Assembly: GCF_003402535.2 (NCBI RefSeq)
Contig: NZ_AP025170.1
Span: 930,001-994,000, forward strand
Source of the DNA: Cupriavidus sp. P-10
GTDB taxonomy: Bacteria; Pseudomonadota; Gammaproteobacteria; Burkholderiales; Burkholderiaceae
DNA length: 64,000 bases
Direction of reading: 5' to 3'
The number at the start of each line of letters is the position of its first letter. The stretch's first letter is position 1. The position numbers were made by a program, and so were the translations under genes. A model generated the notes under the pieces. It had not been told where the DNA came from. It worked only from the letters and a program-made list of their open reading frames with translations, and searched no databases. Positions 39,195 to 41,840 of this stretch are shown piece by piece.

Positions 39195-39677
39195 TCAGCC
39201 GGCCAGTGCCCGTGCCCAGTGCACCACGTGGGGCCCGGCAATGGCAAGCCAGGTGCCCCCGCACAGCACCAGCGCCAGCAACACCGCTGCGCTGCCGAAA
39301 TCCTTGGCGCGCTTGGACAGGCTGTGGCGTTCCAGCGAGATCCGGTCGATTGCCGCCTCGACGCTGGAGTTGAGCAGTTCCACGATCAGCACGACCAGGA
39401 GCGTGCCGAGCAGCAGGATGCGTTCGACCACCCCCACCGGCAGCAGGAAGGCGCATGGCGCCAGGATCGCCACCAGCGTCAGTTCCTGGCGGAACGCGCT
39501 TTCCTCCAGCACCGCGTAGCGCAGGCCGGACAGCGAGTTGATCGCGGCACGCCAGGCGCGTGCCAGGCCGCGGTTGCCTTTGTGGGGGTTCTGCTCGATC
39601 GTGTAGTCAGCGCTCTGGGCTGCCGGCGGCCTCTGCAGGGGCGGGTCGGACGGCAGTTCCGGATGGGGTTTCGGCAT
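39195..39677 (-). CDS. dgkA: Diacylglycerol kinase, prokaryotic DgkA type
   Basis: Phosphorylates diacylglycerol to phosphatidate at the inner membrane. The 160-residue protein has the three-span DgkA core with [10 protein letters not shown], the signature [20 protein letters not shown]3[11 protein letters not shown] in the middle and a final span; the N-terminal 40 residues are a Pro-rich extension. Its ATG lies inside the end of the glycosyltransferase gene (71-bp overlap), so the two are made from one transcript. In this operon it would return the diacylglycerol made by the phosphoesterase to the phospholipid pool. Confidence 0.93.
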
Positions 39678-40719
39678 GGGTTTGCGATGCGGGTTGGGCC
39701 GCTGCGCCGACCGGCTTGCCGGCGGCGAACGGCCGCAAGTGGGCCAGGAACTGCTCGGAGGCGGCGCGCCATGAAAACCTCTCGGCATGGCCTCGGGCCG
39801 TGGCGCGGTCGATGCGCAGCGCTTCCAGGCAGGCTTCGCGCAGGTCTTCGTGCATCACGCCCGCGGGGCTGTCGCCCAGCACGTCGATCGGGCCGGTGAC
39901 CGGGTACGCCGCCACCGGCAGGCCGCTGGCCAGCGCTTCCAGCAGCACCAGCCCGAAGGTGTCGGTGCGGCTCGGGAACACGAAGACATCAGCCGAAGCA
40001 TACACCCGGGCCAGTTCCGGCTGGCTCAGCACGCCCAGGTAGTTGGCGCCGGGATAGCGCGTACGCAGCGAGGGCAGTGCGGGGCCGTCGCCGACCACCC
40101 ACTTGGAGCCGGGCAGGTCCAGCGCCAGGAAGGCCTCGACGTTCTTCTCCACCGCCACGCGGCCCACGTACAGGAAGATCGGGTGCGCCGTGTTGAGCAC
40201 GTTGGCGCGCTGTGGCGTGAACACGTCCAGGTCGACGCCGCGCGTCCACAGCACGCCATGGTCGATGCCGTGCTGGTGCAGGTCGTCTAGCACCACCGGC
40301 GTCGGCGCCATCACCGACTGCGCCGGGCCGTGGAACCAGCGCAGGAAGCGGTAGGTCCAGGCCAGCGGGATCCCGAAGCGCGCCTGCACGTACTCCGGAA
40401 ATCGCGTGTGGTAGGCCGTGGTGAAGGGCAGTCGCCGGCGCAGCGCATGGCGCCGCGCGGCCAGGCCCAGCGGGCCTTCGGTGGCGATATGCAGGGCATC
40501 GGGGCCGAACGCTTCGATGCGCCGCCGCACCCGCGCCGACGGCAGCAGCGACAGCCGGATCTCGGGGTAGGTCGGGCACGGCACCGTGCGGAATTCCAGC
40601 GGCGTGATCATGTCGACCGTGTGGCCCAGTGCCTCCAGCTCGCGGCGCGTGGATTTGAGCGTGCGCACCACGCCGTTGACTTGCGGTTCCCAGGCATCGG
40701 TGACGATCAGGATCTTCAT
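39607..40719 (-). CDS. GT4-family glycosyltransferase, probable diacylglycerol glycosyltransferase (Agt-like)
   Basis: A 370-residue GT-B fold enzyme: N-terminal acceptor domain starting KILIVTDAWEPQVNGVVRTL, donor domain with FLYVGRVAVEKN and FPSRTDTFGLVLLEALASGLPVAAY (the E-x7-E type donor site). The group includes mannosyl- and glucosyltransferases that act on lipids. An ideal GGAGG ribosome binding site precedes ATG 40719. It stands between a PlcP-like phosphoesterase and diacylglycerol kinase under a Pho box, the same context as Agt enzymes that make mono-glycosyl-diacylglycerol during phosphate limitation. That specific role is inferred from context. Confidence 0.87.
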   Translation of the reverse strand: MKILIVTDAWEPQVNGVVRTLKSTRRELEALGHTVDMITPLEFRTVPCPTYPEIRLSLLPSARVRRRIEAFGPDALHIATEGPLGLAARRHALRRRLPFTTAYHTRFPEYVQARFGIPLAWTYRFLRWFHGPAQSVMAPTPVVLDDLHQHGIDHGVLWTRGVDLDVFTPQRANVLNTAHPIFLYVGRVAVEKNVEAFLALDLPGSKWVVGDGPALPSLRTRYPGANYLGVLSQPELARVYASADVFVFPSRTDTFGLVLLEALASGLPVAAYPVTGPIDVLGDSPAGVMHEDLREACLEALRIDRATARGHAERFSWRAASEQFLAHLRPFAAGKPVGAAAQPASQTHAETPSGTAVRPAPAEAAGSPER

Positions 40720-40776
40720 GCAGCCTCCTCGGGGGCGTTGGCAGGGCAAGGCGGAATCAGGGTTGCCGGGGCAGGA

Positions 40777-41757
40777 TCAGCCCGCCACCGCGGCACGGCG
40801 CCGGCGGCGCGTGGCCGGTTCGGGCGGATCCAGCAGTGTGGTCCAGTAGACGATCTTCAGTTCGCCTTCCATGGTCTCGACCAGCGCCGACAGGCTCTCG
40901 ACCCAGTCGCCGTCATTGCAGTAGAGCTGGCCGTTGACCTCGCGGATCTCGGCCTTGTGGATGTGGCCGCAGACCACGCCGTCGCAGCCGCGCCGGCGCG
41001 CTTCGTCGACCATCGCGGTCTCGAAGGCGCTGATGTAGTTGACCGCGTTCTTGACCTGGTGCTTCAGGAACTGCGACAGCGACCAGTACGGGAAGCCCAG
41101 TCGCGCACGTAGCCGGTTGAAGTGCCGGTTCAGCGCCAGGATCATCGTGTACAGCGAATCGCCCAGGTAGGCGAGCCAGCGCGCGTGCTGCACCACGCCG
41201 TCGAACAGGTCGCCGTGCACCACCCACAGCCGGCGTCCGGTGGCGGTGACATGCACCGCCTCTTCGCGCACGGTGATGTCGCCGAACGCCATGCCGTCGA
41301 ACTGGCGCGCGGCTTCGTCGTGGTTGCCGGGCACGTAGATCACCTCGGTGCCCTTGCGCGCCTTGCGCAGCAGCTTCTGCACCACATCGTTGTGGCTTTG
41401 CGGCCAGTACCAGCCGCGGCGCAGCTGCCAGCCGTCGATGATGTCGCCGACCAGGTAGAGCTGGTCGGATTCGTTGTGCTTGAGGAAGTCGAGCAGGTAG
41501 GTGGCCTGGCAGCCAGGCGTGCCCAGGTGGATGTCGGACAGCCAGATGGCGCGGTAACGGTGGACCGGGTGCGGCTCCGGCGGATAGGTGTCCGGCTGCT
41601 CGCGCAGCGGCGCGAGTGCGGCGCCGTCAAGGCCTGGCGGCAGGAAGGCGGTGAGCGGCGCGGCTTCCCAGCCGGTGTCGGCACCGCGGCGCAGCCGTTG
41701 CTTCAGTTGCGCGGCCTTCGACAGGTATCCGCGGGCGGATCGGAGTGCTTGCACCAT
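40777..41757 (-). CDS. Calcineurin-like metallophosphoesterase, PlcP-type phospholipase C candidate
   Basis: A 326-residue cytoplasmic metallophosphoesterase with all metal motifs: SDIHLG (74-79), GDIIDGW (104-110), GNHD (144-147), HGDLFD (181-186) and GHIH (264-267). Databases often call this family UDP-2,3-diacylglucosamine diphosphatase (LpxH-like). Here the Pho-box promoter and the following glycosyltransferase and dgkA point instead to PlcP, which releases diacylglycerol from phospholipids so that phosphorus-free lipids can replace them (known in marine alphaproteobacteria and pseudomonads). The first gene of the operon; the start is 43 bp from the Pho boxes. LpxH function is the alternative. 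Confidence 0.85.
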   Translation of the reverse strand: MVQALRSARGYLSKAAQLKQRLRRGADTGWEAAPLTAFLPPGLDGAALAPLREQPDTYPPEPHPVHRYRAIWLSDIHLGTPGCQATYLLDFLKHNESDQLYLVGDIIDGWQLRRGWYWPQSHNDVVQKLLRKARKGTEVIYVPGNHDEAARQFDGMAFGDITVREEAVHVTATGRRLWVVHGDLFDGVVQHARWLAYLGDSLYTMILALNRHFNRLRARLGFPYWSLSQFLKHQVKNAVNYISAFETAMVDEARRRGCDGVVCGHIHKAEIREVNGQLYCNDGDWVESLSALVETMEGELKIVYWTTLLDPPEPATRRRRRAAVAG

Positions 41758-41800
41758 GGCAGTCCCGGTAGCGGCGATGGCTGCATTCAGCCAGCGCGCG

Positions 41801-41840
41801 ATGACGGCGCCGTGACGGAAACATGACTGACTTGTGAAGC
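41801..41840 (-). promoter_or_regulatory. Tandem Pho box (PhoB binding site), four heptamers
   Basis: Read on the minus strand, heptamers resembling CTGTCAT recur with exact 4-base spacers: GCTTCAC (41834-41840, weak), CAGTCAT (41823-41829), CCGTCAC (41812-41818) and CCGTCAT (41801-41807). The 11-bp period is the hallmark of PhoB sites. A -10-like CTGAAT follows ten bases after the last repeat, where PhoB-dependent promoters place it, and the metallophosphoesterase ATG is 43 bp downstream. Confidence 0.78.

What the first reader, a model, noticed from the sequence alone, without database searches (positions are those of the whole stretch)
39195..41840. Pho-box-driven operon of a PlcP-like phosphoesterase, GT4 glycosyltransferase and diacylglycerol kinase: a candidate lipid-remodelling cassette
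Seen: three genes in tight order (57-bp gap, then a 71-bp overlap) behind four CTGTCAT-like heptamers with exact 11-bp period, ending 43 bp from the first ATG. Known: PlcP plus an Agt glycosyltransferase replaces phospholipids by glycolipids under phosphate limitation in marine alphaproteobacteria and pseudomonads. Inference: this betaproteobacterium does the same, and the overlapping dgkA adds a return route from diacylglycerol to phosphatidate, which would make the cassette reversible. Routine annotation (LpxH-like, generic glycosyltransferase, DgkA) would hide the link.
Basis: partly seen in the sequence, partly recalled or inferred. Interest (0 to 1): 0.78.

Follow-up and report, generated by a model that had tools for sequence, protein, structure and literature searches.

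The report
Phosphate-starvation lipid-swap operon in Cupriavidus
This soil bacterium and many of its relatives carry a three-gene set, apparently switched on by phosphate shortage, that probably strips phosphate from membrane lipids and puts sugar in its place; the first two genes belong to a pathway already known in other bacteria, and the third is a plausible but unproven extra.

Summary
On the minus strand lie a 326-aa phosphoesterase, a 370-aa GT4 glycosyltransferase 57 bp on, and a 160-aa DgkA overlapping it by 71 bp. Upstream are 11-bp-spaced CTGTCAT-like heptamers (three good, one weak) ending 43 bp before the first ATG: the best tandem Pho-box score in the window, and conserved (pairs in 71, triples in 73, of 78 testable related loci). 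The phosphoesterase groups with the P. aeruginosa and S. meliloti PlcP homologues, apart from 29 LpxH-family proteins; the genome has a separate LpxH. The glycosyltransferase is 54% identical to the P. aeruginosa Agt1 homologue. So this is very probably a PlcP-Agt glycolipid-remodelling operon, a new member of a known kind, hidden mostly under the LpxH name. A DgkA gene lies downstream of plcP in 112 of 124 plcP-bearing genomes sampled from the family. The 'reversible cassette' idea is untested: this is the only PF01219 kinase found in the genome, which also has EptA-type and glucan genes whose work should leave DAG, so housekeeping recycling is at least as likely. A 2016 paper already counts DagK with PlcP among Pho-dependent proteins of P. 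putida. Activities, products and expression are inferred.

The parts
41801..41840 (-). Pho-box array: GCTTCAC-CAGTCAT-CCGTCAC-CCGTCAT, 11-bp period; putative PhoB-binding site
   Evidence: 0 of 1000 shuffles; top of the window; 71 of 78 related loci for pairs, 73 of 78 for triples, at empirical p<=0.05; upstream alignment of the window and six Cupriavidus loci
40777..41757 (-). plcP-like gene, 326-aa metallophosphoesterase (predicted intracellular phospholipase C)
   Evidence: 56% to the P. aeruginosa homologue, 51% to the S. meliloti homologue, one branch (100/100) apart from 29 LpxH-family proteins
39607..40719 (-). agt-like gene, 370-aa GT4 glycosyltransferase (predicted UDP-glucose:DAG glucosyltransferase)
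   Evidence: 53.5% over 327 residues to the glycosyltransferase next to the P. aeruginosa plcP homologue; a homologue starts within 600 bp downstream of plcP in 77 of 80 related loci
39195..39677 (-). dgkA, 160-aa prokaryotic diacylglycerol kinase, overlapping agt by 71 bp
   Evidence: PF01219, 104 bits; aligned to solved chains named diacylglycerol kinase, e.g. 3ze4; [13 protein letters not shown] and [10 protein letters not shown] blocks kept; only PF01219 match in the genome

Best explanation
It is a PhoB-controlled membrane-lipid remodelling operon. When phosphate is short, phosphorylated PhoB binds the 11-bp repeats and drives transcription of plcP-agt-dgkA. PlcP, a cytoplasmic metallophosphoesterase, hydrolyses phospholipids to diacylglycerol (DAG) and a phosphorylated head group, which frees phosphorus. 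Agt adds a sugar, most likely glucose from UDP-glucose, to DAG and gives a phosphorus-free glycolipid (MGDG). DgkA phosphorylates DAG to phosphatidate; I think it most likely limits free DAG and serves general DAG recycling, and it could also serve as the return path. Shown here: gene content, family membership of PlcP, closeness of Agt to Agt1, the conserved Pho-box array, conserved gene order. Inferred: PhoB binding, co-transcription, enzyme activities, the sugar, and DgkA's part. The confidence given is for the plcP-agt core under Pho control, not for DgkA's part.
For: PlcP-like rows, with the P. aeruginosa and S. meliloti homologues, on one branch with 100/100 support and in 100% of 200 bootstrap trees, against 29 LpxH-family rows. 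Only 38 bits to the LpxH model (cut-off 134), while a separate gene scores 295. Blocks GDIIDGW, GNHDE and GHIHKAE resemble the two PlcP homologues, not the GNRDF and GHTHRP of the two LpxH rows printed. Agt 53.5% identical to the PA3218-like protein; PA3218 makes MGDG in vitro and in E. coli (PMC8528852, section 17 read). Pho-box array: 71 of 78 (pairs) and 73 of 78 (triples) related loci at p<=0.05; best pair scores at least 14 upstream of plcP in 62 of 78 loci, against 0 of 78, 0 of 64 and 0 of 49 upstream of agt, dgkA and tetR in the same set of loci. The array stands out in the upstream alignment of the window and six Cupriavidus loci (L017 was left out because its match starts at residue 58). 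The genome's two pstS loci carry similar pairs, the second on the strand opposite to pstS. agt follows plcP in 77 of 80 loci, with a computed 4-bp overlap in 18. A DAGK match lies downstream of plcP in 112 of 124 genomes. No promoter-like site anywhere, and no terminator-like site on the coding strand inside the three genes (weak, as shuffles give 0.2 and 1.2 such sites).
Against: No expression, lipid or enzyme data. The genome-wide triple pattern gives 6 matches against 3 for the control pattern, and three of its five sites are not obvious phosphate genes. 7 of 78 (pairs) and 5 of 78 (triples) related loci did not pass p<=0.05. With the same scan 4 of 9 plasmid-borne relatives (L098-L101) score below 10, and some own loci with no known phosphate link hold pairs of 12 to 15. 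No DAGK match downstream in 12 of 124 genomes (at least one of these, G286, is cut by its contig end), in 8 of the 70 loci that have agt and enough sequence, and none annotated beside the P. aeruginosa genes. A kinase that rebuilds phosphatidate under phosphate starvation seems to work against remodelling.
Confidence: 0.86

Rival explanations
1. The phosphoesterase is a second LpxH-type lipid A enzyme, as its annotation says, and the operon belongs to envelope (LPS) synthesis.
For: Most of the named relatives listed carry that name; weak similarity to LpxH models and solved LpxH chains.
Against: Score far below both LpxH cut-offs (38.2 of 134 and 31.4 of 190 bits); a true LpxH elsewhere in the genome (295 bits); separate branch at 100/100; GNHDE in place of GNRDF; Pho boxes; DAG glycosyltransferase and DAG kinase as neighbours.
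Confidence: 0.04
2. The plcP-agt remodelling pair is real, but dgkA is a housekeeping gene that merely lies there: it recycles DAG left by glucan and LPS head-group transfer and has no special part in remodelling.
For: Only PF01219 match found in the genome, together with one EptA_B_N gene and two MdoG genes; 88 of the 112 adjacent genomes have a single such match; 8 of 70 testable plcP-agt loci lack dgkA.
Against: A DAGK match keeps its side and strand in 112 of 124 genomes; in all seven Cupriavidus loci (L013-L019) the nearest ATG of dgkA overlaps agt by 68 to 80 bp; a DagK is counted with PlcP among Pho-dependent proteins of P. putida (PMC5082522, passages; but DagK is not in the passage that lists the proteins absent in the phoBR mutant).
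Confidence: 0.45
3. The glycosyltransferase uses UDP-glucuronate or another sugar, or an acceptor other than DAG, so the product is GADG or something else.
For: GT4 specificity is hard to read from sequence; P. aeruginosa Agt2 and the SAR11 Agt give GADG, the latter with MGDG (PMC8528852 section 17; PMC4796936 section 13). The best NCBIfam match, far below cut-off, is a glycolipid synthase of another acceptor (86 of 480 bits).
Against: The closest characterised relative examined here is Agt1 (UDP-glucose only) at 53.5%; Agt2 was not compared.
Confidence: 0.25

Closest known systems
PlcP-Agt1 operon of Pseudomonas aeruginosa (PA3219-PA3218; PMC8528852)
   Same: Gene order plcP-agt, Pho box upstream, 56% and 54% protein identity to the homologues on locus L094.
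   Different: No dgkA annotated next to it; P. aeruginosa has a second, separate Agt2. The Cupriavidus protein has a longer N-terminus (the match begins at residue 67).
Marine plcP-agt loci, 'type 2' (SAR11, Erythrobacter; PMC4796936)
   Same: An agt homologue downstream of plcP; putative Pho boxes found in plcP clusters (section 13).
   Different: Other lineages; the words 'diacylglycerol kinase' do not occur in the main text.
Sinorhizobium meliloti PlcP (SMc00171; name recalled)
   Same: 51% identity, same branch, Pho-like pair upstream.
   Different: Annotated neighbours are an AHL synthase, a LuxR gene and an MFS transporter, not agt.
Pho-dependent PlcP, DagK and OlsAB of Pseudomonas putida BIRD-1 (PMC5082522)
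   Same: DagK listed with PlcP as lipid-remodelling proteins said to be Pho-dependent (passages).
   Different: The passages do not say that the genes form one operon, nor which DagK family is meant; DagK is missing from the passage that lists proteins absent in the phoBR mutant.
LpxH (UDP-2,3-diacylglucosamine diphosphatase)
   Same: Metallophosphoesterase superfamily.
   Different: Separate branch; model score far below cut-off; own genome has its own LpxH.

Membership tests
PlcP (Pho-regulated intracellular phospholipase C) | Groups with characterised PlcP proteins and not with LpxH | tested here: met
   22 PlcP-like against 29 LpxH-family rows, one branch, 100/100. The P. aeruginosa and S. 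meliloti rows are taken for PA3219 and SMc00171 from their neighbours (locus order recalled); their mutual identity, 46.6%, fits the 46% published.
PlcP (Pho-regulated intracellular phospholipase C) | Calcineurin-like metal-binding motifs | tested here: met
   PF12850 and PF00149 above cut-off; SDIHLG, GDIIDGW, GNHDE, VHGD, GHIHKAE in the sequence.
PlcP (Pho-regulated intracellular phospholipase C) | Pho box in the promoter | tested here: met
   (sequence only; PhoB binding not tested)
PlcP (Pho-regulated intracellular phospholipase C) | Hydrolyses phospholipids to DAG under phosphate limitation | not testable with these tools
   needs enzyme and lipid assays
Agt (DAG glycosyltransferase of lipid remodelling) | GT4 protein close to a characterised Agt, beside plcP | tested here: met
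   53.5% over 327 residues, 333 bits, to the PA3218-like protein; the other own-genome GT4 hits reach at most 48 bits
Agt (DAG glycosyltransferase of lipid remodelling) | Makes MGDG or GADG from DAG | not testable with these tools
   needs expression and lipid MS
DgkA (prokaryotic DAG kinase) | PF01219 domain with the conserved catalytic blocks | tested here: met
   104 bits, cut-off 22.3; alignment to solved chains named diacylglycerol kinase; which residues are catalytic is recalled. No NCBIfam model matched at 0.001.
LpxH | Reaches the curated LpxH model cut-off | tested here: not met
   38.2 of 134 bits and 31.4 of 190 bits

The most novel reading that the evidence does not exclude
In Burkholderiaceae dgkA is a built-in third part of the phosphate-starvation operon: a DAG valve made together with PlcP and Agt, which caps free DAG during remodelling and turns DAG released by PlcP straight back into phospholipid when phosphate returns, so that one regulator sets the glycolipid to phospholipid ratio in both directions.
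Probability: 0.3. Interest if true: 0.5.

Novelty: new member of a known kind. Interest (0 to 1): 0.4.

Why it matters
It extends PlcP-Agt lipid remodelling, which the papers seen here describe in marine bacteria and P. aeruginosa (with Agt also in Agrobacterium), to Burkholderiaceae, where 124 of 150 sampled genomes have a plcP match, two of them broken or partial (G172, G243). The gene is mostly filed under LpxH there, so lipid, membrane-charge and phosphorus-budget studies of Cupriavidus, Ralstonia, Burkholderia and Polynucleobacter could miss it. The conserved dgkA gives a concrete, testable idea about how DAG is handled during remodelling.

Tried and rejected
LpxH membership: tested by model score, own-genome search and tree, and rejected.

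Chance origin of the heptamers: rejected by shuffles, by conservation and by the controls upstream of the neighbouring genes.

Genome-wide specificity of the triple GTCAY pattern: only twofold over the control pattern. Of its five sites, one is plcP and one lies upstream of the OlsB-like gene; one lies before an ORF that by eye looks like an EAL-domain protein, one in a gap before an ABC-permease-like ORF, and one is a short perfect repeat where no convincing gene follows (the last three read by eye). I therefore rest the Pho-box claim on conservation, not on this scan.

Operon end: a terminator-like hairpin at 39161-39146 follows dgkA, but the shuffles give 1.2 such sites on average, and a TATAAT just downstream looks like a tetR promoter (by eye); not used as evidence.

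Literature: (PlcP with Cupriavidus) found 0 papers. Searches listed no title or start of abstract that describes this operon in betaproteobacteria; these are capped lists of open-licence papers (for instance 25 of 15,167). Passages of PMC13086504 name plcP in Alpha- and Gammaproteobacteria, Actinobacteria, Cyanobacteria and Verrucomicrobia and do not name it in Betaproteobacteria. One search found none of the searched terms in PMC9239053; one search showed passages of PMC9804370 on P. aeruginosa only. One search, a search for the S. meliloti locus name, listed nothing useful. The B. cenocepacia phosphorus-stress proteome paper (doi 10.1111/1462-2920.15451) and the S. meliloti PlcP paper (PMC2806695) are not held. 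So I cannot say that this is not in print.

Rows dropped: L032 and L072 from the Pho-box test for lack of upstream sequence; L017 from the Cupriavidus upstream alignment; L115 from the LpxH set, whose match has a stop inside. In one search the single-DAGK count printed 90; G182 and G233 have a second match in the per-genome table that was not among the listed rows, hence 88.
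Full report
What is there. The window lies in a 9.08-Mb, five-contig genome whose closest named relatives in these searches are Cupriavidus (90% identity to C. necator for the phosphoesterase). Upstream stand heptamers GCTTCAC, CAGTCAT, CCGTCAC and CCGTCAT at exact 11-bp spacing (41840-41801), ending 43 bp before the ATG. The first is weak (3 of 7).

Is the Pho-box array real? With a soft matrix of my own made from the consensus CTGTCATNNNNCTGTCAT printed in PMC8528852 (passage), the site is the best of both strands of the 64-kb window for two, three and four repeats, and none of 1000 shuffles of the 200-bp upstream region reached it. 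Of 80 related loci, 78 had enough upstream sequence; 71 of 78 (pairs) and 73 of 78 (triples) scored at p<=0.05 against 200 random windows of the same locus (these windows are probably mostly coding, so the control is not ideal). A better control is the neighbours: the best pair scores 14 or more upstream of plcP in 62 of 78 loci, upstream of agt in 0 of 78, of dgkA in 0 of 64, of tetR in 0 of 49. In the upstream alignment of the window and six Cupriavidus loci the array stands out. Other phosphate-linked genes show similar sites with the same scan: the P. aeruginosa plcP homologue (pair 14.9, triple 21.9) and the S. meliloti one (pair 12.4), and the two pstS loci of this genome (pairs 20.2 and 18.3, the second on the strand opposite to pstS). 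The LpxH locus of this genome does not (best pair 7.6). Against this: some own loci with no known phosphate link also hold pairs of 12 to 15, four of nine plasmid-borne relatives (L098-L101) score below 10, and the triple pattern genome-wide is only twofold over its control.

What is the phosphoesterase? It scores far below both curated LpxH cut-offs, and the genome holds a separate LpxH at 295 bits. In a tree of 51 rows the 22 PlcP-like rows, with the P. aeruginosa and S. meliloti homologues, lie on one side of a branch with 100/100 support and in 100% of 200 bootstrap trees; the 29 LpxH-family rows lie on the other (many inner forks are open and some branches are long). Identities are 56% (P. 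aeruginosa) and 51% (S. meliloti) against 26% for the best-scoring LpxH-family row. The P. aeruginosa segment (L094) is carried on a plasmid; I take it for PA3219-PA3218 because its neighbours match what I recall of PAO1 and because its 46.6% identity to the S. meliloti protein matches the published 46%. In the 120 homologues listed, the names given are LpxH or UDP-2,3-diacylglucosamine hydrolase/diphosphatase names, or generic ones (metallophosphoesterase, calcineurin-like phosphoesterase, Ser/Thr protein phosphatase family, hypothetical protein); many rows have no name.

The glycosyltransferase. It is 53.5% identical over 327 residues to the protein encoded next to that P. aeruginosa gene. 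PA3218 (Agt1) makes MGDG from DAG and UDP-glucose; PA0842 (Agt2) makes GADG (PMC8528852, section 17 read in full). I did not compare Agt2. A homologue starts within 600 bp downstream of plcP in 77 of 80 related loci, with a computed 4-bp overlap in 18 of them (one, L060, and several at contig ends are fragments). Other own-genome GT4 hits are remote (at most 48 bits).

The kinase. PF01219 matches at 104 bits, aligned to solved chains named diacylglycerol kinase. It is the only PF01219 match in this genome; PF00781-type kinases were not searched. Among 150 genomes drawn from the family, 128 have a DAGK_prokar match and 124 have a plcP match; in 112 of the 124 a listed DAGK match lies downstream on the same strand within 4 kb (median 1284 bp between the matches; agt was not searched in this set). 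Of those 112, 88 have no second match. Some of the 12 others are assembly breaks (G286 is cut by its contig end). In the named set 63 of 80 loci have dgkA after agt; 8 have agt and enough sequence but no dgkA there, 6 are cut short, 3 lack agt. So dgkA is a conserved third gene in Burkholderiaceae but not part of every plcP-agt locus. The genome also has one EptA_B_N gene and two MdoG genes; from general knowledge of these pathways, head-group transfer from phospholipids to LPS or glucans leaves DAG, so a lone DgkA has other work. That DagK belongs with PlcP among Pho-dependent proteins is already said for P. putida BIRD-1 (PMC5082522, passages), although the passage listing the proteins absent in the phoBR mutant does not name DagK.

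How it most likely works. Low phosphate, then PhoB on the repeats, then PlcP releases DAG from phospholipids, Agt caps it with glucose, and DgkA takes the surplus. The first two enzyme steps rest on close homology to proteins tested elsewhere; PhoB binding, transcription across the three genes, the sugar and the role of DgkA are inference.

Verdict. The finding is sound and its main interpretation probable: a PlcP-Agt operon, hidden mostly under the LpxH name, widespread in Burkholderiaceae. As a kind it is known. The new points are the lineage (as far as the searches here show), the depth of conservation of the Pho array, and the conserved dgkA.

Noticed in passing
L193:1238-1277 (G000 C1, about 2326.6 kb): An OlsB-like gene (PF13444 130 bits; NCBIfam OlsB 94.5 bits of a 350 cut-off, but only a 101-aa piece was submitted) has its own tandem Pho-like array about 50 bp before its likely ATG, which suggests a second phosphorus-free lipid route, ornithine lipid, under the same control.
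   Followed up: partly
L088:4977-8415: In a Burkholderiaceae MAG plcP overlaps by 4 bp the first gene of a phosphonate transporter set (PhnC-like just under its cut-off, PhnD and PhnE over theirs), with a different GT4 just upstream: another phosphorus-starvation context for plcP.
   Followed up: partly
L097:4019-8802: On a Mitsuaria plasmid a plcP-like gene with no agt annotated beside it stands next to ppk1 and a Ppx/GppA gene.
   Followed up: no
L094; hits H5-H7: Three P. aeruginosa plasmid records carry the plcP homologue; in the one opened it lies with agt in what looks like a piece of chromosome (by recall of the PAO1 order).
   Followed up: no
L093 (CP090106.1): A 3.7-Mb S. meliloti record titled pSymB carries the AHL synthase, LuxR and plcP region; by size it looks like a mislabelled chromosome (by recall).
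   Followed up: no
window:38385-39086: A TetR-family gene (PF13972) follows dgkA and has a match in 49 of the 80 related loci, on the other strand in two Cupriavidus loci, L014 and L016; it seems to have its own TATAAT (by eye). Any link to lipid metabolism is unknown.
   Followed up: no
L201:1501-1527 (G000 C2:1268781): An exact triple GTCAY array lies just before an ORF that by eye resembles an EAL-domain c-di-GMP phosphodiesterase.
   Followed up: no
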